A stretch of 64,000 bases of DNA from Hyphomicrobium sulfonivorans (GTDB taxonomy: Bacteria; Pseudomonadota; Alphaproteobacteria; Rhizobiales; Hyphomicrobiaceae): positions 434,001-498,000 of the forward strand of contig NZ_PZPO01000001.1 in the NCBI RefSeq assembly GCF_013306565.1, read 5' to 3'. This document shows, one piece after another, positions 3,307 through 40,520 of the stretch. Both the position numbers and the translations under genes were made by a program. The stretch's first letter is position 1. Every line of letters starts with the position of its first letter. The notes beneath the pieces are model-generated. The model did no database searches. It worked only from the letters and a program-made list of their open reading frames with translations, and was not told where the DNA came from.

Positions 3307-3405
3307 TCTGAGGCGCGCGCACCGAAAGAACCGTTATCGAATTTGAGTTGCAGCTCCAGCATGCGCGCTGCGCGACACGCAAGGCAGTCGCTCCCGGTTG
3401 GCCGA

Positions 3406-4245: not shown

Positions 4246-4378
4246 CCCGCGATCCTCGAAACCCGCTATTCGCCGCCAGGCCGCGCCCGCCAGCCATTGA
4301 TGCGTATTGTCACGCCGAAATGGGCAACCGGCCGCCCTGCGCCAAGTTTCCCACACCCCCGCCGGCCAAGGCGTTACG

Positions 4379-4603: not shown

Positions 4604-4707
4604 TGGGGTAAGATAAAACCAACTGCGCCTTGCGGCAAACTTCATGTGTGCTTGCGGGCTGCCAGACGCTATACCAACTGCAATAAAACCTGCTCGGAAA
4701 CAGGCCC

Positions 4708-5724
4708 TTGGCACAGATCATTCCCCTCGATGCCGCTCGCACCCCACCGGCCAGCTTGCAACCGCTGTTCGACCTGGTGGCCAGCGACATGGAGGCCATC
4801 AACCGCATCATTCTGGACAAACAGGTTTCAGACGTCGAGCTGATACCTGAGCTGGCCCACCATCTCATCGATTCCGGTGGCAAGCGGCTGCGGCCGATGC
4901 TGGCGCTGGCTGCCTGCAAGCTCTGCGACTACGACGGTGCCGGGCATGTTCGCGTTGCGAGTGCTATCGAGTTCATGCACACGGCCACGTTGCTGCACGA
5001 CGATGTCGTCGATGAAAGCGGCCTGCGCCGGGGCAAGAAGACCGCGCGCATGCTGTGGGGCAATCAGGCCAGCGTGCTGGTGGGCGATTTCCTGCTCGGC
5101 CAGGCTTTCCGCATGCTGGTCGATGTCGGCTCGCTGCCGGTGCTGAAAATTCTCTCCAACGCCGCCGCCGTGATTGCTGAAGGCGAGGTTATGCAGCTCG
5201 CCGCCGCCAACAACACCGCCACCACCGAGGACGAATACCTCGCGATCATCAATGCCAAGACGGCCGCTCTGTTCTCAGCCGCCGCCGAAGTGGGCGCTGC
5301 AATTTCGAGCCGCCCGGTAGCCGAGCAGATGGCCCTGCGCGCCTATGGCCGCAACCTTGGCCTTGCATTCCAGCTTGTCGACGACGCGCTCGACTATTCC
5401 GGCGACAGCGCCAATCTGGGCAAGTCAACCGGCGACGATTTCCGCGAAGGCAAGATCACACTGCCGGTCATCCTGTCGTTCCGCCGTGGCAACGAGGAAG
5501 AGCGCCAGTTCTGGAAGCGCACCATAGCTGAAGGCCAGATCAAGGACGGCGACCTTGAGCACGCCATCGGGCTGATGAAGCAGCACAAGGCGCTGGAAGC
5601 CACGATGGAGCGCGCCCGTTCCTATGGCGCCATTGCGCATGACGCTCTTGGCATTTTTTCCGACCGTCTGGAGAAAGCAGCCATGCAGGAAGTCATCGCG
5701 TTCTGTCTGCATCGCTCGCACTGA
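4708..5724 (+). CDS. ispB: Long-chain polyprenyl diphosphate synthase (octaprenyl/decaprenyl type)
   Basis: A 338-residue trans-prenyltransferase that elongates farnesyl diphosphate with isopentenyl diphosphate to make the side chain of ubiquinone. The first aspartate-rich motif is DDVVD at residues 98-102, preceded by GGKRLRP, and the second is DDALD at 225-229, followed by GKSTGDDFREGK. Unlike the ispA product at 46042, it has DDxxD with no two-residue insertion, and a small residue upstream of the motif, as expected for long products. The product length cannot be read directly; C50 is usual in Hyphomicrobiales. The start is a TTG at 4708, with an in-frame ATG at residue 28 as the alternative. 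Confidence 0.9.
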   Translation: MAQIIPLDAARTPPASLQPLFDLVASDMEAINRIILDKQVSDVELIPELAHHLIDSGGKRLRPMLALAACKLCDYDGAGHVRVASAIEFMHTATLLHDDVVDESGLRRGKKTARMLWGNQASVLVGDFLLGQAFRMLVDVGSLPVLKILSNAAAVIAEGEVMQLAAANNTATTEDEYLAIINAKTAALFSAAAEVGAAISSRPVAEQMALRAYGRNLGLAFQLVDDALDYSGDSANLGKSTGDDFREGKITLPVILSFRRGNEEERQFWKRTIAEGQIKDGDLEHAIGLMKQHKALEATMERARSYGAIAHDALGIFSDRLEKAAMQEVIAFCLHRSH

Positions 5725-9287: not shown

Positions 9288-9566
9288 TCAAACTCATCCT
9301 TTGGAGGCTGTGGGCCGATTCCCGCAGATGACAGACTAGCAAACAACCCGATGATTTGGCGACACCGGGCTTGAGTAACGTTGAATCTGCAAATCTTACG
9401 GGAAAAGCCCACACCCCTCATGCGTTTAGGGCCAGCCTTCCACAGTTGAGGTGAATTGCGGTCCTGCGATGGCACCGGGGGCATTTGCCGACTCAATTGT
9501 GGCCGGCAAATGCCGAAATATGCCGAAGCAGGTTTTACTGCTTGGCTTCTGGGCCTCAACGCGGCG

Positions 9567-11246
9567 TCACATACCCGCGTAGTTCGGGCCTCCGCCACCC
9601 TCCGGGCACACCCAGGTGATGTTTTGGCTCGGATCCTTGATATCGCAGGTTTTGCAGTGGACGCAGTTCTGCGCGTTGATCTGGAAGCGCGGCTCGCCGT
9701 CGGCTTCAACCACGATCTCATAGACGCCAGCCGGGCAATAACGCTGCGCCGGCTCGGCAAATTCCGGCAGGTTAATAGAAACTGGCACGGCCGGATCGGT
9801 CAGCTTGAGGTGAACCGGCTGCTCTTCCTCGTGATTGGTGCCCGAGAACGACACGTTCGTCAGGCGGTCGAAGGTCAGCACGCCGTCGGGCTTGGGATAG
9901 TCGATCGGCTTGGCCTTCTCAGCCCGCTTCAGCGTTGCATAGTCCGGCTTGCGGTGGCTGAGCGTGAAGCGCAGCCCGCCCGGGATCAGCGTGTTCAGCC
10001 ACATATCGAGGCCGGCGAACGGGAAGCCAATGAAGGTGCCAAAGCGCGACCACAGCGGCTTTACGTTGCGTACCGGCTTCAGATCCTTGGCGATATCTCC
10101 GTTTTCAACCGCTTCGGAATAAGCGGTCAGCTCATCCTGCTGCCGGCCCTCGGCCATGGCGGCGAACGCCGCTTCCGCCGCTGCCATACCGGAAAGCATG
10201 GCGTTGTGGCTGCCCTTGATGCGCGGCAGATTCATGAAGCCAGCCGAGCACCCGAGCAGCGCGCCACCGGGGAATGTGAGCTTCGGCACCGACTGCCAGC
10301 CACCCTCGGTCAGCGCGCGCGCGCCGTAGCCCATGCGCTTGCCGCCCTCGAAGGTGTCGCGAATGGCGGGGTGGGTCTTGAAGCGCTGGAACTCCTCGTA
10401 CGGCGAAAGATACGGATTTTCGTAGTTCAGGTGCAGCACGAAGCCGACCGAAACGAGGTTGTCGCCGTAGTGATAAAGGAACGAGCCACCGCCGGTGCGG
10501 CTGTCCAGCGGCCAGCCAAATGAGTGCTGCACCAGACCGGGCTTGTGCTTCTCCGGCGCGATCCGCCACAACTCCTTGAGGCCAATACCGAATTTCTGGC
10601 CTTCACGGCCTTCCGTCAGCTTGAACTGCTCAATCAGCTGCTTGCTCAGCGAGCCGCGGGCGCCCTCGGCAAAGAACGTGTATTTGCCGCGCAGTTCCAT
10701 GCCGCGCACGAAGTTGTCGGTGGGCTGGCCGTCGCGGCCGATGCCCATGTCACCGGTCGCGATGCCGACAACGGCGCCGTTCTCGTCGTAGAGAACCTCG
10801 CTGGCCGCAAAGCCCGGATAGATCTCGACGCCCAGCTCCGTCGCCTGCTCGCCCAGCCATGCACACAGCGCGCCGAGGCTGACGATATAATTGCCGTGAT
10901 TGTTCATCAGCGGCGGCATCAAGAAGTTGGGCAGCCGCAGCGACTTGGTCGCCGTCAGGAAGTAGAAGCGGTCGTCCTTCACTTCAGTATCGATCGGTGC
11001 GCCCTTCTCCTTCCAGTCCGGAATGAGGCGGTTGATACCCTTGGGATCGATCACAGCGCCGGAAAGAATATGAGCGCCAACCTCCGAACCCTTCTCGACC
11101 ACGACCACTGACAGCTCGGTTTCGGCCTCTGCGGCGAGCTGCTTCAGTCGAATGGCGGCACTGAGCCCGGCAGGACCAGCTCCGACGATAACGACGTCGA
11201 ATTCCATCCCTTCTCTGGGCGGCAGCTCGGGAGCGGTCTCGGCCAT
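9567..11246 (-). CDS. Electron transfer flavoprotein-ubiquinone oxidoreductase
   Basis: A 559-residue membrane-associated flavoprotein that passes electrons from reduced ETF (fatty- and amino-acid dehydrogenases) to ubiquinone. The N-terminal FAD site is VVIVGAGPAGLSAAIRLKQ (about 19-37). The C-terminal 4Fe-4S region carries the required cysteines: the first in RYCPAGVYEIV, then CVHCKTCDIKDPSQNITW, then VCPEGGGGP near the end. The length matches the bacterial and mitochondrial family. The ATG at 11246 has GAGGTGA eight bases upstream; a more distal in-frame ATG at 11273 lacks one. It is divergent from the uracil-DNA glycosylase gene across 189 bases. No etfAB is in the window. Confidence 0.95.
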   Translation of the reverse strand: MAETAPELPPREGMEFDVVIVGAGPAGLSAAIRLKQLAAEAETELSVVVVEKGSEVGAHILSGAVIDPKGINRLIPDWKEKGAPIDTEVKDDRFYFLTATKSLRLPNFLMPPLMNNHGNYIVSLGALCAWLGEQATELGVEIYPGFAASEVLYDENGAVVGIATGDMGIGRDGQPTDNFVRGMELRGKYTFFAEGARGSLSKQLIEQFKLTEGREGQKFGIGLKELWRIAPEKHKPGLVQHSFGWPLDSRTGGGSFLYHYGDNLVSVGFVLHLNYENPYLSPYEEFQRFKTHPAIRDTFEGGKRMGYGARALTEGGWQSVPKLTFPGGALLGCSAGFMNLPRIKGSHNAMLSGMAAAEAAFAAMAEGRQQDELTAYSEAVENGDIAKDLKPVRNVKPLWSRFGTFIGFPFAGLDMWLNTLIPGGLRFTLSHRKPDYATLKRAEKAKPIDYPKPDGVLTFDRLTNVSFSGTNHEEEQPVHLKLTDPAVPVSINLPEFAEPAQRYCPAGVYEIVVEADGEPRFQINAQNCVHCKTCDIKDPSQNITWVCPEGGGGPNYAGM

Positions 11247-11435
11247 ATTCGGTATCACCTCGCGTGGCGGCAAGCGTCTGCAAACTTCTGCAAACTTCTA
11301 ATGTCTCTAAGGTGGTCGTAGGTCCCTCTGCCCCGCAGCGTCAAGCGCCCCGGGGCCGCAATTTTCACAACACGCGGCTGCGAGGGAAAAGCTACAACGC
11401 TAGGAGAGCACGCTGCACCGCGATAAGGTAGCCCC

Positions 11436-12371
11436 ATGAGCTCTGACAGCAATCGCGACATTGAGGCCCAGCGCGCCGCCGGACGCATCCTTGCGTGGTA
11501 TGCGGCCATGGGCGTCGACGCAGCAATTTCTGACACCACTGTCGACTGGCTGGCGCGGGGTGAACAGGCCCCAGGACAAGGATTTAGGCTGCTCGCCGAC
11601 GCTGGCCAAGCGCCTCAAGGCGCACAGGCTTTTTCCCAAGGGAACATTGCTGCCCGGGGGCCGGGTGCACCCGCGCGGCCGTTGCCTACCGGAGTGCCGC
11701 AGCGCCCGCCCTATGCCGGAGCTGCCGCCCCGGCACAGCCTGCGCGCCAGTTCTCGGTGCGCCCAGCAGCCGCACCCGCTGACGTCGCTCCGTTTGTCGA
11801 TCTTGCGAATATCAACACGCTGGCCGATCTGGGCAGCGCCCTCGCATCGTTCGACGGCTGTGGATTAAAGGCGACCGCCAAGAACCTGTGCTTCTATCGC
11901 GGAGCAGAGCGCGCGCCGCTGATGATCATCGGTGAAGCGCCGGGCCGCGATGAAGATCTGGCCGGCAAGCCGTTCGTCGGCCGAGCAGGCCAGTTGCTCG
12001 ACCGCATGCTGGCCGCCATCGACGTCGACGAAACAAACGTCCACATCACCAACATCGTCTATTGGCGCCCGCCGGGCAACCGCACACCGACACCGCAAGA
12101 GGCCATTGCCTGCCGCCCGTTCCTCGAAAAGCAGATTGCGCTCGTGGCTCCCAGGATCGTGCTCGCCCTCGGAGGCGCCGCAGCCAAGCAGCTGTTTGAT
12201 GTTGCTGACGGCATCATGCGCCTGCGCGGCAAGTGGCGACCGTTCGCTGTCAGCGGCCAGGAATACAAATCCATGGCAACACTGCATCCAGCCTATCTGC
12301 TGCGCACTCCGGCTGCAAAAAACATGGCCTGGCGCGATTTGCTGAATGTGAAAGCTGCGTTGAAAAGCTGA
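11436..12371 (+). CDS. Uracil-DNA glycosylase, family 4 type
   Basis: A 311-residue protein whose catalytic part (from about residue 125) belongs to the iron-sulfur uracil-DNA glycosylases, which remove uracil from DNA. Motif 1 is GEAPGRDEDLAGKPFVGRAG (166-185), with the water-activating loop GEAPG. The WRPPGNRTPTPQE segment is typical, and motif 2 is HPAYLLR (284-290). Candidate cluster cysteines are in FDGCGLKATAKNLCF and EAIACRPF. I do not see a clean CxxC pair at the first position, so the cluster ligands need checking. Residues about 50-120 are Pro/Ala/Gln-rich linker after a short N-terminal helix. AAGGTA precedes the ATG at 11436. Confidence 0.9.
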   Translation: MSSDSNRDIEAQRAAGRILAWYAAMGVDAAISDTTVDWLARGEQAPGQGFRLLADAGQAPQGAQAFSQGNIAARGPGAPARPLPTGVPQRPPYAGAAAPAQPARQFSVRPAAAPADVAPFVDLANINTLADLGSALASFDGCGLKATAKNLCFYRGAERAPLMIIGEAPGRDEDLAGKPFVGRAGQLLDRMLAAIDVDETNVHITNIVYWRPPGNRTPTPQEAIACRPFLEKQIALVAPRIVLALGGAAAKQLFDVADGIMRLRGKWRPFAVSGQEYKSMATLHPAYLLRTPAAKNMAWRDLLNVKAALKS

Positions 12372-13795: not shown

Positions 13796-14774
13796 CACCG
13801 TTCCCCCTCGACACTAAACTCACACGCGATGCACCACTACCACTGTCAACCAGAATTGTCCGCCCACCCAGCGCGCGCAATTCCGGAAACCGACAAACGT
13901 AACTAACGCCGTTGCATGCAGCACGATCCGGCTGCGTTACTTGAAATTCTTCTAAGCTTTGCAGCGACCGATCTCGACGCTGCGCATCAGATTCAGGCGT
14001 CGATCACACAGCACCACAACGCACGGGTGACGCCTTGCGAACTCCATGCGCGGCATCGCTGCAACGTAAGATTTGCGACGGCTGTGCATGTTGGCCGCTT
14101 CACCCCGAAGCGCTGATCCGCCATCAGAGCATCGAAATCTCGCGGCGAAATTAGGACCAACAAAGGATTTCAACCGCCAATGCGCGCGGTCCGTCCGGCA
14201 CACGCTGGGCACGTCAGCAGCGGCATGCGCCGTGCGCCTCGACGCTCCGCGACCGAGCCGCGCACGCAATGTGATCGCGCGCATATGTGGCGCCCAAGCG
14301 AAGCCGCATCAAGCAGCCGCTACGATTGTCAGAAGCACACGCACCGCCGCACGCTGGATTGGCTTAGATGGCCGCATTGGCCCCGGATATTGGGGCGCAG
14401 CTTCAGCTCTCACCGGAGCCCTCCGAATTGCAGATCAGCCAGATTACTGTAGGTCGCACCACTCATCTCTTCGTGGCTGAGCTTCGCCGCTAGGCCTGCG
14501 ACGGAGTGGTGCGGAGCCGCGGCCAAGCCGAGCAGCCGATCCGGGCCTGCCATTCAGCTATGCTCGTTAGCGAAATCCAACCGCCGCCATTAATTCGAGG
14601 GCTCTGGCATCCCGGCCCCGTAATTTGCTCACCGCCGCCGCGAACTCAATCCGAATTGTTCCATTTTTGTTCTTGCTTTGTATGAGTCGCTACCATACCT
14701 TCCGGGTGGCGGCCGTTTGCGCCCAATACAGCGGCAGCAGAGGGCACCGTCCAGCCTGAACTCGGAGCATTTGC
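13796..14774. other. Gene-poor intergenic region of about 980 bases
   Basis: I see no convincing gene here. Several open frames exist on both strands, but they have arginine/alanine/serine-rich shadow composition, no ribosome-binding sites and no recognisable domain. One short frame, 13916-14116 on the plus strand, starts with a reasonable helical stretch (PAALLEILLSFAATDLDAA) but has no ribosome-binding site. No tRNA-like or transposase-like sequence was found. The right end holds the LexA-like box and the promoter of the radical SAM gene. The region could be the decayed remains of a lost gene. Confidence 0.5.
14658..14672 (+). promoter_or_regulatory. Predicted LexA (SOS) operator upstream of the radical SAM gene
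   Basis: The sequence reads GTTC, seven bases (CATTTTT), GTTC. This is exactly the direct-repeat form GTTC-N7-GTTC established for LexA binding in Alphaproteobacteria, and its spacer is T-rich, as is common. It lies 103 bases before the GTG start of the radical SAM gene, with no other promoter-facing gene nearby. By inference, that gene belongs to the DNA-damage regulon. Confidence 0.65.
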
Positions 14775-15890
14775 GTGCAACAGTTTCGCCGCCAGCCAAA
14801 GCCGGAAGCATCGCCCGGTGGCCTCGTTGATGAGGAACGCAGGCGCGGACGCGGCGCGCAGTCCAATCACACCGGCCGCTTCGAAACCGAACGGCGCGAG
14901 ACGTTTGATGACGGCTGGGATGGCCTTGCGGAGCTGGACGCCTTCAAGACAACCGTTTTTGACGATCCCGCGCGCACCATCATCACCCGCAACGACAGCC
15001 CGGACATTTCATTCGATCGCTCCATCAACCCCTATCGCGGTTGCGAGCACGGCTGCATCTATTGCTTCGCCCGGCCAACCCACTGCTATCTCGGCCATTC
15101 AGCCGGGCTCGATTTTGAAACCAAGCTCTATGCGCGCACCAACGCAGCGCAACTGCTCGAGCGAGAACTCTCCAACCCGCGCTATCAGCCCGCCTGCATG
15201 GCGATCGGCACCAACACAGATCCCTATCAGCCGATCGAGCGCGAACGGCGCATAATGCGTTCGGTGCTGGAAGTGCTGGAGCGCACCAACCATCCGGTCG
15301 GCATCGTCACCAAGTCGGCGCTCATCACGCGCGACATCGATATCCTCGCCCGCATGGCGGAGCGCGGCCTGGCGCGGGCGGCGCTATCTATAACGACGCT
15401 CGATCCCAAGATTGCGCGCGCGATGGAGCCCCGCGCCCCGACGCCGCGCCGGCGGCTGGAAGCCGTGAAGCAGCTCGCTGCCGCAGGTATTCCCACAACG
15501 GTGATGGTCGCGCCGATCATTCCCGGCCTCACCGATCCGGAGATAGAAAGCATTCTGGAAGCCGCGCACGAGGCCGGAGCAACGCAGGCCGGATACGTCA
15601 TGCTGCGGCTGCCGCTGGAAATCAGCACGCTGTTCCGCGAATGGCTGGCGTCGGAATTCCCTAACCGCGCCGACCGGGTCATGCATCTGCTGCAATCGAT
15701 GCACGGCGGCCGCGATTACACCGCCGAATTCAGCATCCGCCAGCGCGGCACCGGCCCCTATGCCGATCAGATCGCGGCCCGCTTCCGTCTGGCGGTGCGA
15801 CGCCTCGGCCTTAATGCCGAACGCAAGCAGCTGCGCACTGACCTGTTTCGCCACCCCGTGCTCAAAGGGCAACAAATGGCGCTATTCTGA
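14775..15890 (+). CDS. PA0069/Rv2578c-type radical SAM protein (SplB-like)
   Basis: A 371-residue radical S-adenosylmethionine protein. The cluster motif is C-x3-C-x2-C in NPYRGCEHGCIYCFARP (about residues 85-97), and PTHCYLGHSAGLDFETKLYAR follows, as in the PA0069 family, distant relatives of spore photoproduct lyase. Later segments GTNTDPYQPIER, HPVGIVTKSALITRD and APIIPGLTD trace the TIM-barrel strands. The substrate is unknown. The start is GTG at 14775 with GGAG seven bases upstream. A LexA-type box at 14658-14672 suggests DNA-damage induction, which would suit a repair-related activity. It lies just upstream of rnhB and ccrM on the same strand. Confidence 0.88.
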   Translation: MQQFRRQPKPEASPGGLVDEERRRGRGAQSNHTGRFETERRETFDDGWDGLAELDAFKTTVFDDPARTIITRNDSPDISFDRSINPYRGCEHGCIYCFARPTHCYLGHSAGLDFETKLYARTNAAQLLERELSNPRYQPACMAIGTNTDPYQPIERERRIMRSVLEVLERTNHPVGIVTKSALITRDIDILARMAERGLARAALSITTLDPKIARAMEPRAPTPRRRLEAVKQLAAAGIPTTVMVAPIIPGLTDPEIESILEAAHEAGATQAGYVMLRLPLEISTLFREWLASEFPNRADRVMHLLQSMHGGRDYTAEFSIRQRGTGPYADQIAARFRLAVRRLGLNAERKQLRTDLFRHPVLKGQQMALF

Positions 15891-24135: not shown

Positions 24136-24338
24136 CAGCTCCGCCCCAGCTACCGGCACCCGACAAGCACATTTCCCGCATATCAGCCATTTCAGGAACG
24201 GCGCACCGCACTGACGCTTGATTAAAGCGGATAACCCACCTGCTCCGCGCCTCAGCTCAAGGCTGCGCCTTTATTTCAGCCAAACTTTCGCCACTATGGC
24301 CGATGGACAGCCATCGGAAGATTGCGGGGGAGGCTGAA

Positions 24339-26375
24339 ATGGCTTTCAAGTTTCAGGGTCGGTGCCAGATTCAGGCTTTGCGCCAGCTCCAGGTTTGGTG
24401 CCAACGGTCGCGTTATCGCTCCGCTCCACATAATCCGAGCAGGGCCAGTGTGATCGCGACGTTGTCATTCGCAATCGCCACTCTGCTAGCCGCTGTCCCA
24501 GCGACAGCGGAAACTGCGAACGGCCATTGCGAAGATGTAGGCGTCGCCGTGCTGGCGTCACCGCACGCGCCATGGAAAGGCGCTCCACTCCGCGTCCTGT
24601 TCTCCACTGAAGCGCCGCTGCAGGGCGAGCTGTCGCTCATCGCCCCCAATGGCAAGGTGGCCGCGAAATCCGACGCACGCCTCGGTGGCCCGCCATACGT
24701 CTGGTTTGCTGAGGTCCCCGCTCCGGCGGCAGGCGAATGGAAAGCAAAGCTGCTGCGCACCAACGTCGAGGGCGACTGTTCGACCATCATTCATCCGATC
24801 ACCGTGCGGGCCAAGGCCAGCGCGTCACCACGCCAGACACAGGACAGCGTCTGGCCTATCCGCGCCGCATGGGATCGTCCGACCGAAAACCTCTATTCCG
24901 CCTGGATCGAGAAGCTGTTCGATGCGCCGCTCGACGAGCAGCCGTCGTGGAAGGCGCTGCATGACGTGCTGCGCGACCGCCAGCGCAACGTGTTGTTCGA
25001 CCATCTCGGCCTGCGCGAAGACCAGCAGAAGCTTTTCATCCGCCCCGATTGCGCCGACCTGCCCTACTTCCTGCGCGCCTACTTTGCTTTCAAGCTTGGT
25101 CTGCCATTCGGCTATGCAAAATGCAATCGCGGTGGTGGCGGCAAGGCACCGCAATGCCACGCGTGGTGGAACATCAAGAACGAAGAACCGCCGCCGGAGC
25201 CGCCCGCACCGAAAACTCCGCCGCCTGCAGCCGACTTCTTCTCGCTGTTCACCGGATCGACGCCGAAAAAGCCTGAGCAAGTGAAGCAATCACTGCGTCC
25301 ACCGGGGCTGGTACCGTCGTTCGGCTACTATCTGCGCACAACCGTCGCCAACGGCGTTCATTCCGGCTCCGGCCGCACAGCGAACACCGACGACCGCACC
25401 GATTACTATCCGGTGCCCCTGAAGGAAGACACGCTGCGTCCCGGCACGGTTTACGCCGACCCATACGGACATCTGCTCGTCATCACCAAGCGCGTGCCGC
25501 AAACCGAAGACGGCGCGGGTGTGTTCCTGGCAGTAGACGGCCAGCCGGACGGAACCATTGCGCGCAAACGCTTCTGGCGCGGCAACTTCCTGTTCGCACA
25601 AGACCCCGCCCTCGGCAGCCCCGGCTTCAAGCGTTTCCGTCCGGTCGTCATGTCGCGCGATGGCACCCTGCGCCGTCTGACGAACAAGGAAATTGCTGCG
25701 CACGCTGACTATGGCGATTTCTCGCTTGAGCAATCCGATCTTGATCTCGAAGCCTTTTACGACCGCATGGACGAGTTGATGTCGCCACGGCCGCTCGATC
25801 CGCTGCGCGCCATGCAGGAGGCGATCACGGCGCTCGACGAGCAGGTCAACGCGCGCGTTACGTCGGTTGAGAACGGGCGCAAATATCAGGTGGGCGGCGG
25901 CCGCGAGGTGGCGATGCCGGATGGGGCTTCGATCTTCGAGACCACCGGACCGTGGGAAGACTTCGCCACCCCGTCGCGCGATCTGCGGTTGCTGATCGCG
26001 ATCGATGTCGTGCGCAAATTCCCCGAGCGCGTGGCCCGGCGTCCGGAGCGTTACGCCATGCCGGCCGGTAAAACCGCGGCCGATGTGAAAGCCGAGCTTG
26101 AAAATGTACTGGCGACGGAGCTGAAGGCGCGCAGTTTCACTTATACGCGCACCGATGGCTCGCCGTGGAAGCTGACGCTGCAGGATGTGGTGGAGCGCAC
26201 GCCGAATCTGGAGATGGCTTACAACATCAACGACTGCGTGGAACTGCGTTGGGGCGCATCGGCGGACAGCGACGAAGCCGCCACCTGCAAGCGCCGCGCA
26301 CCCGGAACGCAGCGCCAGAAAATGACCGAATACCGCGAGTGGTTCTCCGAGCGCCGCCGCCCACCAAGGGGTTAA
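24339..26375 (+). CDS. Large secreted protein with papain-like (NlpC/P60-type) Cys-His pattern
   Basis: A 678-residue protein with an N-terminal basic leader and a hydrophobic signal (IATLSFAIATLLAAVPATAETA, cleavage near residue 58). Residues 60-160 form a beta-rich domain with two cysteines. A segment CADLPYFLRAYFAFKLGLPFGY starts at Cys238, and a later DPYGHLLVITKR contains His378. A nucleophilic Cys at a helix start, then a strand His after Gly, is the order seen in NlpC/P60 and papain-like enzymes. A cysteine hydrolase or amidase is therefore possible but not shown. A Pro-rich insert lies near 270-310. The ATG at 24339 has GGGGGAGG five bases upstream. The last eight codons lie within the direct repeat bounding the adjacent cassette. 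Confidence 0.7.
   Translation: MAFKFQGRCQIQALRQLQVWCQRSRYRSAPHNPSRASVIATLSFAIATLLAAVPATAETANGHCEDVGVAVLASPHAPWKGAPLRVLFSTEAPLQGELSLIAPNGKVAAKSDARLGGPPYVWFAEVPAPAAGEWKAKLLRTNVEGDCSTIIHPITVRAKASASPRQTQDSVWPIRAAWDRPTENLYSAWIEKLFDAPLDEQPSWKALHDVLRDRQRNVLFDHLGLREDQQKLFIRPDCADLPYFLRAYFAFKLGLPFGYAKCNRGGGGKAPQCHAWWNIKNEEPPPEPPAPKTPPPAADFFSLFTGSTPKKPEQVKQSLRPPGLVPSFGYYLRTTVANGVHSGSGRTANTDDRTDYYPVPLKEDTLRPGTVYADPYGHLLVITKRVPQTEDGAGVFLAVDGQPDGTIARKRFWRGNFLFAQDPALGSPGFKRFRPVVMSRDGTLRRLTNKEIAAHADYGDFSLEQSDLDLEAFYDRMDELMSPRPLDPLRAMQEAITALDEQVNARVTSVENGRKYQVGGGREVAMPDGASIFETTGPWEDFATPSRDLRLLIAIDVVRKFPERVARRPERYAMPAGKTAADVKAELENVLATELKARSFTYTRTDGSPWKLTLQDVVERTPNLEMAYNINDCVELRWGASADSDEAATCKRRAPGTQRQKMTEYREWFSERRRPPRG
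26349..26374 (+). repeat. Left 26-bp direct repeat of the inserted cassette
   Basis: The 26 bases here begin GAGCGCCGCCGCCCACC and end AAGGGGTTA. They are identical to 28097-28122, while the flanking bases differ on both sides. This copy spans the last codons (…RRRPPRG) and most of the stop codon of the secreted protein gene, so the gene is intact despite the insertion. Confidence 0.9.
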
Positions 26376-26460
26376 TATACGTTAACAAAGTAGTTGCGCC
26401 GAGCACAACTGCGCGGCATCCTCGGCCTCATATTACGCGTAAGAGTAATGGGGTGGCGTT

Positions 26461-27687
26461 GTGCTGGGGGATTTGACCTCGCTCGTAACCGAGCTCACGA
26501 TTTTTGGCGCAATATTCGCCGCGCTCGGAACTGGAGTTACGATTTTTCTTGGGGGCATGCGCCTTGGAAAAAACCTGTCGCAAAAGTCGATAGACGAAAA
26601 GCTTGAGCAGGCTGCGGAAGCTGCCTTGCAAGACAAGCAGCGCGCAGATGCGCTGGAGACGCACTTCCAGCAGGTTCAGGATGTTTTGGACGGGTCAGTC
26701 AATATCTGGCTGCGTCCAACAAGCCATGATGTTGGCCAGCACTACAAACAGCTGCACAAGAGCATTCCGATTCTCACCGTCGCAAATTTCAAGGGCGGTG
26801 TTGGAAAAACCACCGTCTCCGCCAATCTCGCAGCTTACTTTGAGCTCCATCTCAACAAGCGCGTTTTGCTGATCGATTTCGACTATCAGGGATCGTTGAC
26901 CGAAATCCTCATGGCAGCCTCCAAGCAGGCGAAGCTAGAGGCTTCCGCAATAGGCCTGATCTCAGGGCAGCATGCGCCAGAAGCGGTTTTGGCGAAGTCG
27001 TACAGCCTGCATCCAGAGCTGCCACAGAGCCGATTCTTCCCGTGCTTCTATGGCTTCAACAAAGTAGAAAATCAGGTTTTGCTGCGCTGGCTCACCCAGC
27101 CTAACGCCCCTGAAATACGCTTCAACACGCACAACTATCTGTCTGATCCGATCGTTCAACGGAACTTCGACGTTGTGATTATCGACGCCGCTCCGCGATT
27201 GATGACAGCTACCATCAATGCAGCTTGCGCCAGCACACATGTTCTTATTCCGACGATGCTGGACGGCCTGTGCACCAACGCCACAATCAATACATTGGGC
27301 GTATTCCATGAGCTGAAGGCCGAGCTTAATCCTGCTCTGGAGATAGTCGGAGTGCTCCCTACCTTCGTCGCACAATCTCAGCGGCTTTCCGCAAACGAAA
27401 CCGAAGCGCTGGAGCAATTACGCCAGTTGATACCATCGTACTGGAAAAAGGCACCCTTCCCCGAAATCATCTCGGATGCCTGGATTTGCAGGAAGGCTGC
27501 AATTTCGAGAATTGCCGGCAATGGCCTCGCTTTCAGTACCGATAATGACGTGCGCGACATGTTCATCGCACTCGGCGACAAGATAAGTGCAAGGATCTTC
27601 CCCAATGAAGATAGGCCAACTCCGGATGCTGGTATTGGATACGCTGCAAGCGTCACGCCGATCGCTTCCGCGCGCCGAAGAGGATGA
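26461..27687 (+). CDS. Membrane-anchored ParA/MinD-like ATPase of the inserted cassette
   Basis: A 408-residue protein in three parts. Residues about 5-35 are one hydrophobic helix with glycine-rich face (LTIFGAIFAALGTGVTIFLGG). Residues 36-80 are a probable coiled coil (SIDEKLEQAAEAALQDKQRA). The rest is a deviant-Walker ATPase: KGGVGKTT at 111-118, LLIDFDYQGSLTE (Walker A' / DxD-like), and VVIIDAAPRLMTATINAA followed by THVLIPTMLDGLCTNAT. ParA ATPases usually partition DNA or position protein complexes and are soluble; a membrane anchor plus coiled coil is unusual. The start is GTG at 26461. No ParB or parS is evident. It overlaps the partner gene by 83 bases, implying coupled expression. 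Lower GC than the neighbours suggests transfer. Confidence 0.8.
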   Translation: MLGDLTSLVTELTIFGAIFAALGTGVTIFLGGMRLGKNLSQKSIDEKLEQAAEAALQDKQRADALETHFQQVQDVLDGSVNIWLRPTSHDVGQHYKQLHKSIPILTVANFKGGVGKTTVSANLAAYFELHLNKRVLLIDFDYQGSLTEILMAASKQAKLEASAIGLISGQHAPEAVLAKSYSLHPELPQSRFFPCFYGFNKVENQVLLRWLTQPNAPEIRFNTHNYLSDPIVQRNFDVVIIDAAPRLMTATINAACASTHVLIPTMLDGLCTNATINTLGVFHELKAELNPALEIVGVLPTFVAQSQRLSANETEALEQLRQLIPSYWKKAPFPEIISDAWICRKAAISRIAGNGLAFSTDNDVRDMFIALGDKISARIFPNEDRPTPDAGIGYAASVTPIASARRRG

Positions 27688-28075
27688 TCTCAGAGCGTTT
27701 TTAAATTCTATTGCCGAGTTTGATGACCACGATCTGACAGCAGTTCTTGAGGCGCTCAAAAAAGCAAAGCCGAAAACCAAGGCTGCAAAGAATGGAACTC
27801 CAAAAGCGCCGAAAAAACCAGCAAACTTGGATGAAGCGGCTGTCATCAAATACGTACAAGAACTGCGCAGCGCTCAGACGCCTGAAGCTGTCGCGGCCAT
27901 TTTGCAAAACATGAAGTCGGTCAAGGTGCCTGAGACCAAGGCCATCGCCAACAGGTTCCGCGGCTTCGAGGCAAAGTTCCGCAGTGGTAAGGAAGCGTTG
28001 GCAGCTATCGAAGCCTGGGCTCTCACCGACATGCGGGCTCAGAGCCGCAAGGGAAAAATCGGCGAAATATTCTGA
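27605..28075 (+). CDS. Unknown partner protein of the ParA-like cassette
   Basis: A 156-residue protein I do not recognise. Residues 1-50 form an N-terminal helical domain (RMLVLDTLQASRRSLPRAEEDDLRAFLNSI, then DLTAVLEALKK). A Lys/Ala/Pro linker with a repeated KPKTKAAKNGTPKAPKKPAN composition covers about 52-75. A C-terminal helical domain (AVIKYVQELRSAQTPEAVAAIL, then KAIANRFRGFEAKFRSGKEAL) ends in basic residues. The two small helical domains on a basic tether resemble adaptor or nucleic-acid-associated proteins, but this is only an impression. The ATG at 27605 lies inside the 3' end of the ATPase gene with AAGGA nine bases upstream. Together the pair fill the whole cassette. Confidence 0.7.
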   Translation: MKIGQLRMLVLDTLQASRRSLPRAEEDDLRAFLNSIAEFDDHDLTAVLEALKKAKPKTKAAKNGTPKAPKKPANLDEAAVIKYVQELRSAQTPEAVAAILQNMKSVKVPETKAIANRFRGFEAKFRSGKEALAAIEAWALTDMRAQSRKGKIGEIF

Positions 28076-28096
28076 CCGGGCTCGTCGCCGAACACA

Positions 28097-28122
28097 GAGC
28101 GCCGCCGCCCACCAAGGGGTTA
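28097..28122 (+). repeat. Right 26-bp direct repeat of the inserted cassette
   Basis: A second perfect copy of 26349-26374, 21 bases after the stop of the small cassette gene and 18 bases before the mutY stop codon on the opposite strand. It is followed by GCAATCGACGG instead of the ATATACG that follows the left copy. Confidence 0.9.
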
Positions 28123-28140
28123 GCAATCGACGGTACGGCG

Positions 28141-29247
28141 CTAGTTCTCGCTCAGGGCGTGGGCGATGATCTTGCGCATGACGCTGGGCAGTGCGGCGGC
28201 GTGCAGATCGCGGCGCGCGACCCACTGGCAGCGGTCGGGCTCGGCCCAGAACGTCAGCGACGCATCGGCAGGAACAAGCGCGCGGAAAACAATCACCTCC
28301 AGCCGGAAGTGCGTGAACACGTGCACCACTGTGCCCGGCACCTCCCACCAGTCGCCGCGCACCGGCGCTGAACGCAACGCATCCTTGCGCGGCGGCAGCT
28401 CATCTCCCCAGGCCGGCCCCGGCACCTCCAGCATGCCGCCCAGCAATCCAGCTTCTGGGCGACGGCGCAGCAACACGCGGCCATCCTCGCTCAGCGCCAC
28501 GAAGGCGAAACCGACGCGATTGGGCCGCTCGGCCTTGCCCAGTTTCATCGGCAGCGTCTCGGCCATGCCGTGCGCGGCAGCGGCACAATCGCTCTGCACG
28601 GGACAAACGAGGCACGACGGCCGGCGCGGCGTGCAGATGCCCGCGCCCAGATCCATCATCGCCTGTGCGAAATCACCCGCGCGCCGATCCGGTGTCAGCG
28701 TGGCAGCAAGGCGCTTCAGCTCTGTCTTGGCGGTTGGCAGCGGCTGGCGCACCGAGAACAGCCGCGCCACGACGCGCTCCACGTTGCCGTCGACCGGCGT
28801 TGCAGCTTCGCCGAAGGCAATCGCAGCGATGGCGTTGGCGGTGTAAGGGCCGATGCCCGGCAGCTTCTGAAGTTCCCCAACCGTTGAAGGGAACTTGCCG
28901 CCAAACTGCTCGACTACCGCGATGGCGCACTTATGCAGGTTGCGCGCGCGGCTGTAGTAGCCAAGGCCGGCCCACGCCGCGAGCACGTCGTCAAGCGGCG
29001 CGGCGGCCAGAGCCTTCACCGTCGGCCAACGGTGGAGAAAACGCTGATAGTAGGGGATGACCGCCTTCACGGTGGTCTGTTGCAGCATAATTTCGCTTAG
29101 CCATACCCGATAGGGATTGGCACGCTTTCCCGGCGCTACGCGCCAGGGCAGCTCCCGCCGCTCCTCGTCGTACCAGGCAAGCAACGCGTCCACCGTGTCC
29201 GGCCCAGCGGGCCTAAGCGGAAGTTGCTTTCGCGCAACAGCAGTCAA
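28141..29247 (-). CDS. mutY: A/G-specific adenine glycosylase
   Basis: A base-excision repair enzyme that removes adenine paired with 8-oxoguanine. Seen are LLAWYDEERRELPWR near the start, the catalytic Glu in WLSEIMLQQTTVKAVIPYY, the helix-hairpin-helix LPGIGPYTANAIAAIAFG with the essential aspartate in TPVDGNVERV, and the cluster cysteines in ICTPRRPSCLVCPVQSDC (C-x6-C-x2-C-x5-C). The C-terminal MutT-like domain runs from about residue 235. A TTG at 29247 with GGGAGA upstream gives 368 residues, the family's usual size. An ATG at 29301 or the longer frame to 29397 would add a basic leader and overlap the divergent DciA-like gene. The start is therefore inferred. Confidence 0.93.
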   Translation of the reverse strand: MTAVARKQLPLRPAGPDTVDALLAWYDEERRELPWRVAPGKRANPYRVWLSEIMLQQTTVKAVIPYYQRFLHRWPTVKALAAAPLDDVLAAWAGLGYYSRARNLHKCAIAVVEQFGGKFPSTVGELQKLPGIGPYTANAIAAIAFGEAATPVDGNVERVVARLFSVRQPLPTAKTELKRLAATLTPDRRAGDFAQAMMDLGAGICTPRRPSCLVCPVQSDCAAAAHGMAETLPMKLGKAERPNRVGFAFVALSEDGRVLLRRRPEAGLLGGMLEVPGPAWGDELPPRKDALRSAPVRGDWWEVPGTVVHVFTHFRLEVIVFRALVPADASLTFWAEPDRCQWVARRDLHAAALPSVMRKIIAHALSEN

Positions 29248-29335
29248 GGGGATGTTCTCCCGGCGCCGGCGAATCGATGACCTTGATGGTAAGCATCGCA
29301 TAGCGGGCTGCAAACGTTCTAAGGTGACAATCCCC

Positions 29336-29941
29336 ATGGCTAGCAACGCCACGTTGCCACGCTCCCGGCCGATGATGCGCTCGACTACCCAGCGCAATCC
29401 GGCAGCGCCGACCGGCTCATATCAGCCGATGCGCTCGTCGCGCGACTACATCTCGGCCCGCGCAGTTGGCGCTTTCGTGCCCAAGCTGACCCACAAAGCC
29501 TTTGAAAAATATGGCTTTGCTGCCGCCACCCTCATTCTGGAATGGGCCACGATCGTCGGTCGCGACGTTGCCGCCTATACCGCGCCGGAGCGCCTGAAGT
29601 GGCCGCGTGGCGTCGACTACTCTGATCCCGATGAAACCGCTTCCAGCCGCCCTGGGGGCACACTGATCCTGCGTGTAGACCCTGCCCGGGCGCTCGACAT
29701 TCAGTACAAGGGCCAACAGCTTATCGAGCGCATCAACGCCCATTTCGGCTATCGCGCCGTGGCCGAGCTGCGCATCCTGCAGGCCCCACTGCCGGAGCGG
29801 GAGGACGCCTCCGCTACCCTGCCCCCAGCCCAGCCCGTACCGGCGCCGGAACTGGCCGATATTGCCGACGAACACCTGCGGCAAGCCCTGACCCGACTGA
29901 AAACCGGCCTGATGGGCCGCCCCCAAAAGCCGCTGAGCTAG
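29336..29941 (+). CDS. DUF721 / DciA family protein
   Basis: A 201-residue protein whose centre (about residues 50-150) is the DUF721 domain: LILEWATIVGRDVAAYTAPERLKWPRG, then LILRVDPARALDIQYKGQQLIERINAHFGYRAVAELRILQ. DUF721 proteins of the DciA type load or activate the replicative helicase DnaB in bacteria without DnaC. The alphaproteobacterial members next to mutY and smc have this layout, with a Pro/Ala tail and a short final helix. It has AAGGTGA eight bases before the ATG. It is divergent from mutY and upstream of two dsbA-like genes and smc, a conserved neighbourhood in Hyphomicrobiales. The helicase role is by family inference. Confidence 0.85.
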   Translation: MASNATLPRSRPMMRSTTQRNPAAPTGSYQPMRSSRDYISARAVGAFVPKLTHKAFEKYGFAAATLILEWATIVGRDVAAYTAPERLKWPRGVDYSDPDETASSRPGGTLILRVDPARALDIQYKGQQLIERINAHFGYRAVAELRILQAPLPEREDASATLPPAQPVPAPELADIADEHLRQALTRLKTGLMGRPQKPLS

Positions 29942-29964: not shown

Positions 29965-30101
29965 TTGACCGGCTTGGAGCAAAGGCCGTTTTGCCTTATT
30001 CCATCGCTCTATAGCGTGCTAACCCGGCCCTATCGAAAAGATTGACGGCATGGGCGGTGCGCCAACAAACAACGCCCAATAATTCCTACTCCCAAGGAGC
30101 C

Positions 30102-30794
30102 ATGCACGTGTCCGCATCCAAGATTTCATCCGGCCGCTATATGATCGCTCGGCGTGCCGTGCTCACCGCCGCCTGCGCCACCGCGCTTGGCGCTGCCCTT
30201 GCCCTGCCGCTTGCCGCCCAGTCGCGCGGTCCGAGCGAAGTTCCGGTCGCGGAACTCATGAAGCCGGTCGGCCTGCCGGATCTGGCTATCGGTCCCGATG
30301 ACGCCAAGGTGACGGTTGTCGAATACGCCTCCATGACCTGCGGTCACTGCGCCACCTTCACCAACAACGTCTGGCCGGACTTCAAGAAGAAGTACATCGA
30401 CACCGGCAAGGTGCGTTACGTGTTCCGCGAATTCCCGCTCGACAATCTGGCTGCTGCCGCATCGATGCTGGCCCGCTGCGCCGGCAACGACAAGGCGCTG
30501 CCGATGATCGAAGTGCTGTTCGAGAAGCAGAACGAGTGGGCATTCGGCGAAGGCAACCCCGTACCGCGCCTGTTCGAGATCGCCAAGCAGGCCGGTTTCA
30601 CGCAGGAATCGTTCGACAAGTGTCTGACCGATCAGAAACTGCTGGACGACATCACCGCCGGCCGCACGCGCGCTTCGGAAGTGTTCGGAGTTTCGGCCAC
30701 GCCGACGTTCTACGTCAACGGTAAGAAGCTTGAGGGCGGCAACACGATGGACAAGTTCGACGCCGCCATCGAACCGCTGCTCGAAAAGAACTGA
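30102..30794 (+). CDS. Periplasmic DsbA-family thiol oxidoreductase
   Basis: A protein of about 230 residues with a Sec signal (ARRAVLTAACATALGAALALPLAAQS). The mature part is a thioredoxin-fold DsbA-like domain (Thioredoxin_4 type). The active site is MTCGHCATF, with CxxC as CGHC, and the cis-proline loop is in SATPTFYVNG. KKYIDTGKVRYVFREFPLDNLAA is the characteristic stretch of this group. It is expected to make or repair disulfides in secreted proteins. AAGGAG lies eight bases before a GTG at 30108 but only two before the ATG at 30102, so the true start may be the GTG. A related lipoprotein follows 14 bases later. Confidence 0.88.
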   Translation: MHVSASKISSGRYMIARRAVLTAACATALGAALALPLAAQSRGPSEVPVAELMKPVGLPDLAIGPDDAKVTVVEYASMTCGHCATFTNNVWPDFKKKYIDTGKVRYVFREFPLDNLAAAASMLARCAGNDKALPMIEVLFEKQNEWAFGEGNPVPRLFEIAKQAGFTQESFDKCLTDQKLLDDITAGRTRASEVFGVSATPTFYVNGKKLEGGNTMDKFDAAIEPLLEKN

Positions 30795-30808
30795 GCATCG
30801 CACCCGTG

Positions 30809-31612
30809 ATGAAATCAGCCGCACTCGCCGCCGCATTGCTGTTGTCCGCCTTGGTCGCGGGATGCGGCGGTAGCGCGCTGACCAGCACAGCATCGTTGTC
30901 GCCGGAGCAGACCACAGCCGACGACAACAGCCCCTTCCCGACCGCTGAGGATGTTGCCTCCAGCGGACCGGAGCGGTTCCATCCGTTCGCTGATCCGACC
31001 GCCAAGCCGTCAGGCGGTCGCGAGGTCATCAAGGACCCAACGATCGAAGATGTGATGCTGACCGGCTCGCTGCCGGAAATGTCGATCGGCCGGGCCGATG
31101 CGCCGGTGACGATTGTCGAATACGCCTCGCTCACCTGCCAGCACTGCCGCCACTTCCACCTGAACACGTTTCCGCAGCTGAAGCGCGAATATATCGACAC
31201 CGGCAAGGTGCGCCTGATCCTGCGCGAGTTCCCGATCGGCAAGACCTCGGGCAACGCCACCATCGCGCTGCGCTGCGCCCCACCGGATAAATATCTGGCG
31301 TTGCATGGAAAATTTCTTGAGCAACAATCCAGTTGGGTCTCGCAGGAAGTGCGCCTCGACCCCATATTCAAGGTTGCAGCTCAGGTGGGGATGACGCGCG
31401 ACCAGTTTGATGCGTGCCTGAAGAATCAAGCCATGATCAATGGGCTCAAGTGGGTGAAGGACCGCGGGCGCAAGCTTGGCGTTATCGGCACCCCCAACTT
31501 CTTCGTCGGCAACCGGCTCGTAAAGAAAGAGCTGACGATGGAAGACATCCGGGCGATGGTCGACCCGCAGCTTGCAGGCCAGACCGCGTCGGCGACCACC
31601 GTCCCGAACTGA
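30809..31612 (+). CDS. DsbA-family thioredoxin lipoprotein
   Basis: A 267-residue paralogue of the preceding gene but anchored as a lipoprotein. The signal AALLLSALVAGC ends in a lipobox Cys at about residue 19. A low-complexity Ser/Thr/Ala linker (about 20-70) leads to the thioredoxin domain. The CxxC is CQHC in SLTCQHCRHF, and the cis-proline is in IGTPNFFVGN. Like its neighbour it contains YIDTGKVR and a REFPIG motif. Two consecutive DsbA-like genes, one soluble and one lipid-anchored, look like a duplication with division of place. The ATG at 30809 is preceded by an in-frame GTG at 30806. Confidence 0.88.
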   Translation: MKSAALAAALLLSALVAGCGGSALTSTASLSPEQTTADDNSPFPTAEDVASSGPERFHPFADPTAKPSGGREVIKDPTIEDVMLTGSLPEMSIGRADAPVTIVEYASLTCQHCRHFHLNTFPQLKREYIDTGKVRLILREFPIGKTSGNATIALRCAPPDKYLALHGKFLEQQSSWVSQEVRLDPIFKVAAQVGMTRDQFDACLKNQAMINGLKWVKDRGRKLGVIGTPNFFVGNRLVKKELTMEDIRAMVDPQLAGQTASATTVPN

Positions 31613-39694: not shown

Positions 39695-39791
39695 GAGCCT
39701 TTCAGCGTTTCGTTGAATCGCCGAAAGGCTCTAGCTGTTTGTTTGGTCGTGCTTCTTGTCGGAAAACCGGTTCCCACTTTTCCGGAAGCAC
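39695..39791. repeat. Bimodular palindromic dispersed repeat, copy B
   Basis: Module 1 pairs GAGCCTTTC (39695-39703) with GAAAGGCTC (39723-39731). Module 2 pairs GTGCTTC (39749-39755) with GAAGCAC (39785-39791) and has CGGAAAA/TTTTCCG inside. Module 2 is identical to that of copy A at 3264-3306. The element ends exactly at the phaB stop codon and could also serve to end the phaB transcript. Confidence 0.85.
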
Positions 39792-40520
39792 TTAGGTAGC
39801 CATGTAGTGGCCGCCGTTGATGTCGAAGCAGGCACCGGTGATGAAGCCGGCGCTGTCGGCAGCAAGGAACACCACGGCGCGCGCGATTTCGTCGGCTTCG
39901 CCCAGACGGCCGGCCGGAATCTGCGGAATGATCTTGGTGTCGAGCACTTCCTTCGGCACCGCTGCAACCATCTCAGTGGCGATGTAGCCCGGAGCGATGG
40001 TGTTGACGGTGATGCCCTTGGCAGCGCTCTCCGCGGCCAGAGCCTTCGTGAAGCCGTGTGCACCAGCCTTGGCGGCCGAATAGTTCGTCTGGCCCATCTG
40101 ACCCTTGCGGCCGTTGATGGACGAAACGTTGATGATGCGGCCGAAGTTGCGCGCGCGCATGCCGTCGATCACCGGACGCGACATGTTGAACAGGCTGTCG
40201 AGATCGACGTTGATGACCTCGTTCCACTGCTCCTTCGTCATGCGGTGAAGCATGGCGTCGCGCGTGATGCCGGCGTTGTTGACGAGAATGTCAACCGGGC
40301 CAACTTCCTTCGTCACCTGCTCGATACCAGCGGCGCAGGCGTCATAGTCGCCAACGTTCCACTTGAAAACAGGAATGCCGGTTTCGGCCTGGAACTGCTG
40401 CGCGGCGGCGTCATTGCCAGCATAGTTGGCGGCGACGCGGTAGCCCGCATTCTTCAGGGCGACGGAAATTGCGTGGCCAATACCACGCGTACCACCCGTC
40501 ACCAGGGCAACACGAGCCAT
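39792..40520 (-). CDS. phaB: Acetoacetyl-CoA reductase (NADPH)
   Basis: A 242-residue short-chain dehydrogenase that reduces acetoacetyl-CoA to (R)-3-hydroxybutyryl-CoA, the monomer for polyhydroxybutyrate. The cofactor loop is GGTRGIGHAIS (about 9-19). NNAGITRDAMLHRMTKEQWNEVINVDL is the classic PhaB segment. The catalytic Ser-Tyr-Lys is in SSINGRKGQMGQTNYSAAKAG, and APGYIATEMV is the substrate loop. The length is the family norm. GGGAGGT lies six bases upstream of the ATG. It is downstream of phaA on the same strand, but a terminator between them suggests that it has its own promoter in 40521-40578 or is fed by read-through. Confidence 0.96.
   Translation of the reverse strand: MARVALVTGGTRGIGHAISVALKNAGYRVAANYAGNDAAAQQFQAETGIPVFKWNVGDYDACAAGIEQVTKEVGPVDILVNNAGITRDAMLHRMTKEQWNEVINVDLDSLFNMSRPVIDGMRARNFGRIINVSSINGRKGQMGQTNYSAAKAGAHGFTKALAAESAAKGITVNTIAPGYIATEMVAAVPKEVLDTKIIPQIPAGRLGEADEIARAVVFLAADSAGFITGACFDINGGHYMAT

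What the first reader, a model, noticed from the sequence alone, without database searches (positions are those of the whole stretch)
26349..28122. Two-gene ParA-like cassette inserted at a gene 3' end between perfect 26-bp direct repeats
Seen directly: identical 26-bp sequences at 26349-26374 and 28097-28122; the left copy completes the upstream gene's C-terminus and stop; only two overlapping genes lie between; sample GC is 50-55% against 65% outside; no integrase is present. Known: site-specific islands often rebuild the gene end they enter, and small anti-phage systems travel this way. Inferred: a compact membrane-anchored ParA ATPase plus a novel helical partner may be a defence or plasmid-maintenance-like system. 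This is the window's best candidate for something undescribed.
Basis: partly seen in the sequence, partly recalled or inferred. Interest (0 to 1): 0.8.

Follow-up and report, generated by a model that had tools for sequence, protein, structure and literature searches.

The report
Wandering two-gene ParA module in Hyphomicrobiaceae
A small pair of genes, a membrane-tethered ParA-type ATPase and a short helical partner, turns up between ordinary genes at many different places in related bacteria, sometimes with a duplicated piece of the neighbouring gene's end as a footprint of its arrival; what it does is unknown, but it moves and evolves like a defence or conflict system.

Summary
Confirmed: two identical 26-bp copies bracket a low-GC two-gene unit, and the left copy is the 3' end of the upstream gene. 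The unit belongs to a recurrent family: a partner profile matches 43 of 103 Hyphomicrobiaceae genomes and 23 of 297 sampled genomes of the order, 6 of these 23 being Hyphomicrobiaceae. Of 68 partner matches in 66 stretches, 48 follow a ParA of the same family. Units have lower GC than their flanks in 42 of 45, and the ParA tree mixes genera. Direct repeats bracket 5 of 45 pairs, each the 3' end of a different gene: the window's gene, moaA, priA, clpA, recR. The window's own genome holds the empty moaA site with one copy. Against a single-insertion story, the sister strain D-2 has the unit at the window's site without the right repeat, and 40 of 45 pairs show no clear repeat. Function is inferred: defence or conflict is my leading guess, about 0.45. 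No phage test, defence-island enrichment or structural match supports it directly.

The parts
24303..26375 (+). upstream gene of 690 aa, no Pfam or NCBIfam match; its last codons are the left repeat
   Evidence: ORF; no family; 95% identical in G001, 70-71% in three congeners, no match in the other three
26349..26374 (+). left copy of the 26-bp direct repeat, 3' end of the upstream gene
   Evidence: D-2 has the same place with 2 differences
26376..26460 (+). 85-bp leader before the ParA start, nearly identical to D-2
26461..27687 (+). ParA-type ATPase with predicted membrane anchor, 408 aa
   Evidence: Pfam AAA_31 1e-23, PHROG 164 7.4e-38; closest solved relatives by sequence are Soj/ParA
26494..26550 (+). 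hydrophobic stretch, residues 12-30, predicted membrane anchor
   Evidence: Kyte-Doolittle 19-residue mean 2.08
26791..26808 (+). deviant Walker A motif KGGVGK, residues 111-116
   Evidence: invariant in 25 aligned ParAs
26485..27420 (+). segment with near-saturated synonymous divergence from D-2, read as an exchanged allele; borders approximate
   Evidence: ParA codons 1-320: dS 1.31, against 0.17-0.27 in flanking genes; identity profile
27605..28075 (+). partner protein, 156 aa, predicted helical, net positive, overlaps the end of ParA
27833..28048 (+). conserved C-terminal helical part of the partner, about residues 77-148
   Evidence: alignment of 29 members; low-confidence model
28097..28122 (+). 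right copy of the 26-bp direct repeat
   Evidence: no trace in D-2
28141..29397 (-). mutY, convergent right neighbour
   Evidence: NCBIfam TIGR01084 3.2e-96

Best explanation
The unit is a self-contained two-gene module that has been horizontally mobile in Hyphomicrobiaceae and neighbouring families. It comes to rest between genes, sometimes with duplication of 25-126 bp of a gene's 3' end, which leaves that gene intact. ParA is held at the membrane by an N-terminal anchor, cycles on ATP like Soj/ParA, and works with a short basic helical partner encoded in an overlapping or adjacent frame. Shown by sequence: pairing, scattered loci, the moaA empty site, gene-end repeats at five genes, a tree that mixes genera, a mosaic ParA and a fast-changing partner. 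Predicted only: the membrane anchor and the helices. Inferred: the partner contacts nucleic acid or an invader component through its variable N-terminal part and conserved C-terminal helices, the membrane-bound ATPase acts as the switch, and the module protects the cell or itself against phages or plasmids. How it is moved (unknown recombinase in trans, passage on integrase-bearing islands, or illegitimate recombination as proposed for restriction-modification genes) is not shown.
For: Pairing: a family ParA lies upstream on the same strand in 24 of the 30 best family loci (one of these ParAs is broken, one partial) and in 48 of 68 partner matches of at least 35 bits over 66 stretches (six weaker partner matches dropped). 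Mobility: 5 of 45 pairs have flanking repeats scoring 45-108 where 99% of 748 random windows score at most 31, each a gene 3' end (four named by NCBIfam). Empty moaA site in the window's own genome; at priA the unit is only in G051 of 9 genomes of its genus; clpA carries it in G054 and G052, while in G049, G056 and G057 the next shared gene follows within 0.2-1.2 kb and no partner match lies there. The tree of 44 ParAs needs 30 label changes for 20 taxon groups, least possible 19, with starred cross-genus sisters. Conflict-like evolution: ParA codons 1-320 have dS 1.31 beside flanking genes of 0.17-0.27; partner dN/dS 0.38 against 0.01 in flanking genes; patchy distribution, 43 of 103. One pair lies about 19 bp before a PD-T7-1 homologue (E 5.5e-145).
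Against: 40 of 45 pairs have no clear repeat. Four of the 748 null windows score 53-131 and were not traced. D-2 holds the unit at the window's site without a right copy, and the two window copies agree at both positions where D-2's left copy differs, so the right copy looks younger than the shared insertion. Taxa still cluster on the tree more than shuffled labels do (30 changes against a shuffled mean of 34.7, as low in 0 of 200), so part of the inheritance is vertical. Partner dN/dS stays below 1, so diversifying selection is not shown. No defence-island enrichment was seen. PADLOC has only partial matches to the ATPase part. The partner has no convincing family, solved relative or fold match. 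20 of 68 partner matches have no ParA, some at contig ends or beside a broken ParA.
Confidence: 0.5

Rival explanations
1. A cargo-positioning pair: the membrane ParA and its small adaptor place or cluster some cellular or mobile-element cargo, as McdA/McdB or other ParA/MinD systems do.
For: ParA/Soj is the nearest family of known structure and the partner is small, basic and encoded next door, as adaptors of ParA/MinD ATPases often are (recalled).
Against: Patchy presence and shuffled loci fit a housekeeping cargo poorly; no neighbour family recurs with the pair in the families displayed (the output was cut and one search shows 25 of 149 families). A transmembrane anchor on the ParA itself is unusual for nucleoid-based systems (recalled).
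Confidence: 0.25
2. A selfish maintenance or addiction module, a relic of plasmid or island partitioning, kept because loss is punished or because it stabilises its host element.
For: ParA-type ATPase; PHROG 164 ParA-like partition family; one relative (G106) lies beside a tyrosine recombinase and a tRNA-Ser gene; solo partners and a broken ParA suggest decay.
Against: No ParB family among the 25 of 38 families listed for 29 partner proteins, and no relative of the window's partner in the plasmid or phage records searched. The window's unit is chromosomal and bare. An intact partner without ParA (G112) argues weakly against a toxin partner.
Confidence: 0.2
3. Ordinary old genes: the pair is vertically inherited in the lineage and the 26-bp repeat is an unrelated local duplication.
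For: The unit is at the same site in D-2, and D-2 lacks the right copy; repeats are not clear in 40 of 45 pairs; taxa cluster on the tree more than shuffles.
Against: Lower GC than flanks in 42 of 45 pairs, unlike loci across genera, starred cross-genus sisters, the empty moaA site, and the same gene-end repeat pattern at four further unrelated genes.
Confidence: 0.1

Closest known systems
Insertion with long target duplication of restriction-modification genes (Nobusato et al. 2000, not read; described in passages of PMC1643837 and PMC3031569)
   Same: A small gene unit without a visible recombinase of its own is found between long, variable direct repeats of the target, next to an empty site in a sister genome.
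   Different: No restriction or methylation gene here; all five repeats seen are 3' ends of protein genes; only 5 of 45 pairs show a clear repeat.
Soj/ParA chromosome and plasmid partition ATPases
   Same: Deviant Walker A KGGVGKT and the following ATPase region; solved relatives 1wcv and 6iub by sequence.
   Different: N-terminal hydrophobic anchor and linker; no ParB match for the partner; no parS array noticed (no motif model used).
McdA/McdB and other ParA/MinD positioning pairs (recalled; MCDA appears among weak relatives of known structure)
   Same: ParA-family ATPase with a small neighbouring partner.
   Different: Partner without a convincing match in any search made; no cargo locus seen; anchored ATPase.
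PADLOC PDC-M28 candidate system
   Same: All 25 aligned ParAs match one model at E 0.01 or better, best 2.1e-11.
   Different: In the seven ParAs scanned singly the match spans at most about 140 of 438 profile positions around the Walker A; the five partner proteins scanned match nothing.
Integrase-borne genomic islands at gene or tRNA 3' ends (recalled)
   Same: Duplicated gene end, gene left intact.
   Different: No integrase in the window unit; each site has a different sequence; one relative, in G106, was traced beside an integrase, and a second integrase match among 110 neighbours was not traced.

Membership tests
ParABS partition system | ParA-type ATPase with deviant Walker A | tested here: met
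ParABS partition system | ParB-type DNA-binding CTPase partner | tested here: not met
   29 partner proteins scanned against Pfam at E 0.1; no ParB family among the 25 of 38 families listed; window partner: none
ParABS partition system | parS sites beside the genes | tested here: inconclusive
   repeat search of 25500-29000 showed no obvious array; no motif model was used
Insertion with long target duplication | direct repeat of target sequence on both sides | tested here: met
   window and 4 other pairs of 45; not seen in D-2 at the window's site
Insertion with long target duplication | empty site with one copy in a relative | tested here: met
   moaA site, G000 against D-2; not available for the window's own site
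Insertion with long target duplication | restriction-modification cargo | tested here: not met
Integrase-borne genomic island | integrase inside the element | tested here: not met
   two main ORFs fill the interval; neither matches an integrase
PADLOC PDC-M28 | full-length match to the candidate's proteins | tested here: not met
   partial ATPase matches only
Anti-phage defence system | protection against phage | not testable with these tools
   needs an infection test
Anti-phage defence system | enrichment next to known defence genes | tested here: inconclusive
   110 neighbour proteins (90-900 aa, up to three per side) of 20 pairs: the one undoubted defence homologue traced is PD-T7-1 in G040; 25 of 29 matching models were displayed and several (PDC-M37B, BilD, IetA) were not traced; no background rate was measured
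McdAB-like positioning system | cargo gene cluster alongside | tested here: not met
   no neighbour family matches more than 3 of 110 neighbour proteins

The most novel reading that the evidence does not exclude
An undescribed family of minimal mobile immune modules: a membrane-anchored ParA switch with a fast-evolving basic partner that spreads as a bare two-gene unit between the 3' ends of housekeeping genes, duplicating the gene end on arrival, with no recombinase of its own.
Probability: 0.35. Interest if true: 0.8.

Novelty: new variant of a known kind. Interest (0 to 1): 0.6.

Why it matters
If right, it adds a ParA-based module to the small gene sets that roam bacterial genomes without visible mobility genes, and it gives a clean, testable case (the moaA site, filled in D-2 and empty in the window's genome) of how such bare units insert at gene ends. 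It also gives a family of dozens of examples in which to look for the function of membrane-tethered ParA proteins.

Tried and rejected
Rejected: chance or low-complexity origin of the repeat. Not found: a decayed right copy in D-2; the 44 bp from the partner's stop to mutY match the 26-mer no better than shuffles do (share of 2000 shuffles at least as good: 0.511). Not supported: phage origin of the partner, with no relative in phage records, and none confirmed in viral contigs, where the scan reaches close relatives only. Led nowhere: a viral-contig scan with the ParA alignment returned 80 ParA loci of 20-32% identity, the best 80 of 220, which I did not examine for partners; a DNA alignment in the wrong orientation was replaced; the partner model from one sequence has mean pLDDT 62 and its Foldseek search has no match at E 0.001; Rfam has nothing at the locus at E 0.1. 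Paper searches for PDC-M28, ParA-like ATPase with anti-phage defense and ParA/MinD adapters returned no paper; of 29 papers found, the 12 listed hold neither antiphage nor defense island. The class sample with the first, weaker profile found 3 of 385, the window's genome included; the phylum sample with the better profile found 5 of 398, the window's genome included, two of them near threshold inside long frames and probably chance.

A printed comparison of the leader was off by one base and is not used; the leader statement rests. The null was drawn from the same stretches and may include unit flanks. One further pair (G078, score 36) is just above the null's 99% line, but its repeat lies 340-437 bp from the unit and I do not count it. 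Borders of the exchanged ParA segment are read from 60-bp steps and 20-codon windows, not from a breakpoint test. In one search the first 65 codons of the upstream gene and about the first 39 of mutY were left out. Gene calls are a simple ORF heuristic and may contain wrong frames. Four of the 48 ParAs (fragments or loci not labelled) are not in the tree of 44.
Full report
What is there. The two 26-bp copies at 26349-26374 and 28097-28122 are identical and are one of three exact direct repeats of 18 bp or more in the 64-kb window. The left one is the 3' end of a 690-aa gene of no known family. Between them lie an 85-bp leader, a ParA-type ATPase gene (26461-27687, GTG start) and a gene for a 156-aa partner (27605-28075) that overlaps ParA's end. 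GC is 0.53 against 0.61 and 0.65 in the flanks. mutY follows in the opposite direction. Neither protein matches an integrase and the window has no tRNA gene.

The proteins. ParA matches AAA_31 (1e-23), CbiA and PHROG 164 (7.4e-38); the nearest proteins of known structure by sequence are Soj and ParA. It has a hydrophobic stretch at residues 12-30; 21 of 25 aligned relatives pass the same hydropathy cut before the Walker A motif. A tryptophan in the linker, KGGVGK, the D-x-D-x-Q-G residues and the D, P and R of a D-x-x-P-R stretch are invariant in 25 ParAs. The partner is predicted all-helical from a single sequence at low confidence (mean pLDDT 62). Over 29 members it has a variable N-terminal part and a conserved C-terminal part, and 27 of 29 have net positive charge by K+R-D-E. 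Pfam, PADLOC, NCBIfam, PHROGs, PDB sequences and Foldseek give nothing convincing for it; its best Pfam match, GemA at E 0.00036, is below that family's cut-off and is shared by 1 of 29 members.

The family. The genome belongs with Hyphomicrobium: the one relative of the ParA confirmed in the named genome collection is in Hyphomicrobium sp. D-2, which I take to be the same as, or nearly identical to, the unnamed G001. With a profile of 29 partners, 43 of 103 Hyphomicrobiaceae genomes have a match, in 17 of 25 genera; 23 of 297 in an even draw of the order, 6 of them Hyphomicrobiaceae; 5 of 398 in the phylum draw, two near threshold. Among the 30 best family loci of the first search, 24 have a ParA of this family upstream on the same strand; one of those is broken and one partial. 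In the 66 stretches there are 68 partner matches of at least 35 bits (six weaker ones dropped), 48 with such a ParA and 20 without; some of the latter lie at contig ends or beside a broken ParA. Whole or nearly whole family ParAs score 276-435 bits and two shorter fragments 149-157; four other ParAs in the same stretches score 77-84 bits, so the family is well separated.

Mobility. Flanking genes mostly differ from locus to locus, with exceptions: G112 and G114 share both neighbours, and a clpA-like gene is near the unit in L161, L173 and L229 (the output was cut). The unit has lower GC than its flanks of up to 3 kb in 42 of 45 pairs. A tree of 44 ParAs (quick search, SH-aLRT support) needs 30 changes of taxon label where 19 is the least possible; starred branches pair, for example, D-2's second unit with one from another genus (G106). 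Labels are still more clustered than in shuffles (mean 34.7, as low in 0 of 200), so inheritance is partly vertical. Of 45 pairs with at least 80 bp on both sides (3 more had too little flank), 5 have a flanking direct repeat scoring 45-108; 99% of 748 random window pairs score at most 31, though four score 53-131 and were not traced. Exact repeats of 22 bp or more at 0.9-3 kb spacing occur nine times in 927,484 bases: three span a unit, and four of the other six lie in one stretch, L165. In all five cases the repeat is a gene's 3' end, reaching into or through the stop codon: the window's gene, moaA, priA, clpA and recR, the last four named by NCBIfam. In four the gene points the same way as ParA; recR is convergent, and its repeat is long and imperfect (126 bp). 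At moaA the window's own genome has one 48-bp copy and no unit, whereas D-2 has the unit and a second copy with changes; D-2 also has about 1.1 kb of further sequence outside the repeat there. At priA only G051 of 9 genomes of its genus has the unit. At clpA, G054 and G052 have it; in G049, G056 and G057 the next shared gene follows clpA within 0.2-1.2 kb and no partner match lies there.

What speaks against a simple story. At the window's site D-2 carries the same pair (G001: 81 and 82% identical proteins) but has no recognisable right copy. The window's two copies agree at both positions where D-2's left copy differs. So the right copy is either younger than the shared insertion, or was made identical later, or the unit was replaced in one lineage. 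Codon comparison suggests that replacement did occur: ParA codons 1-320 have dS 1.31, while ParA 321-381, the partner, the upstream gene and mutY have 0.27, 0.28, 0.27 and 0.17. The partner has dN/dS 0.38 (bootstrap 0.23-0.60) against 0.01 for both flanking genes; this is fast but still below 1. Most pairs (40 of 45) have no clear repeat, which may be age or a different route.

How it may work. Shown are the ATPase motifs, the hydrophobic stretch, the pairing and the pattern of evolution. Inferred is a membrane-bound ATP switch that works with a basic partner. I put about 0.45 on defence or conflict with phages and plasmids, because the unit is patchy, mobile, allele-swapping and fast-changing, and because one copy sits about 19 bp before a PD-T7-1 homologue; PD-T7-1 is an anti-phage gene from the selection in PMC9519451 (passages seen). 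The neighbourhoods otherwise argue neither way: of 110 proteins next to 20 pairs, the Pfam families displayed (25 of 149) are mainly metabolic or regulatory, and PADLOC matches displayed (25 of 29 models) include cross-hits and some that I did not trace (10 of the 110 were scanned singly). Positioning and maintenance remain open.

Comparison with known things. The movement most resembles insertion with long target duplication, reported for restriction-modification genes (passages of PMC1643837, PMC4978471 and PMC3031569; the original paper was not read). The module is not a restriction-modification system, shows no ParB, and does not match PADLOC's PDC-M28 over its length in the members scanned singly. 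The searches for a description in print were those, on open-licence papers only; none of the titles and abstract starts listed describes such a pair (one search listed 6 of 65 papers, 12 of 29). I therefore call it a new variant of a known kind: a known style of movement and a known ATPase family in a combination that I did not find described.

Noticed in passing
L171 (G040) 1302-5041: tRNA-Arg, ParA, partner and then a PD-T7-1 homologue (E 5.5e-145) in one direction; the only repeat of the tRNA region found was 14 bp.
   Followed up: partly
L170 (G106) 8318-12124: The pair beside a tyrosine recombinase and a tRNA-Ser gene, a possible vehicle; its ParA is the sister of D-2's unit at moaA. No tRNA-end repeat found within the stretch.
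   Followed up: partly
L164 (G112) 9500-10060 against L165 (G114): Same flanking genes, but G112 has an open partner gene and no ParA between them.
   Followed up: partly
L157, L158, L159 (genus g10): Partner-like gene without ParA in a similar gene neighbourhood in three genomes, possibly domesticated.
   Followed up: no
L250 (G646) and L254 (G689): Two pairs facing each other tail to tail at one locus (one ParA of L254 runs to the contig end); in L250 a generic ParA gene lies nearby.
   Followed up: no
window 3263-3307 and 39748-39792: Exact 45-bp direct repeat 36 kb apart, looks like an intergenic repeat element.
   Followed up: no
window 30042-31612: Two tandem thioredoxin-fold (DsbA-like, recalled) genes sharing a 20-bp exact repeat.
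   Followed up: no
L161 (G091) 14549-15882: A 27-bp exact direct repeat brackets a 1.3-kb stretch holding a GC 0.48 ORF with a clpA-like start, a possible separate insertion.
   Followed up: no
L154 (G049) 9840-9962: A 19-bp piece of a tRNA-Thr gene repeated between the tRNA and the partner gene.
   Followed up: no
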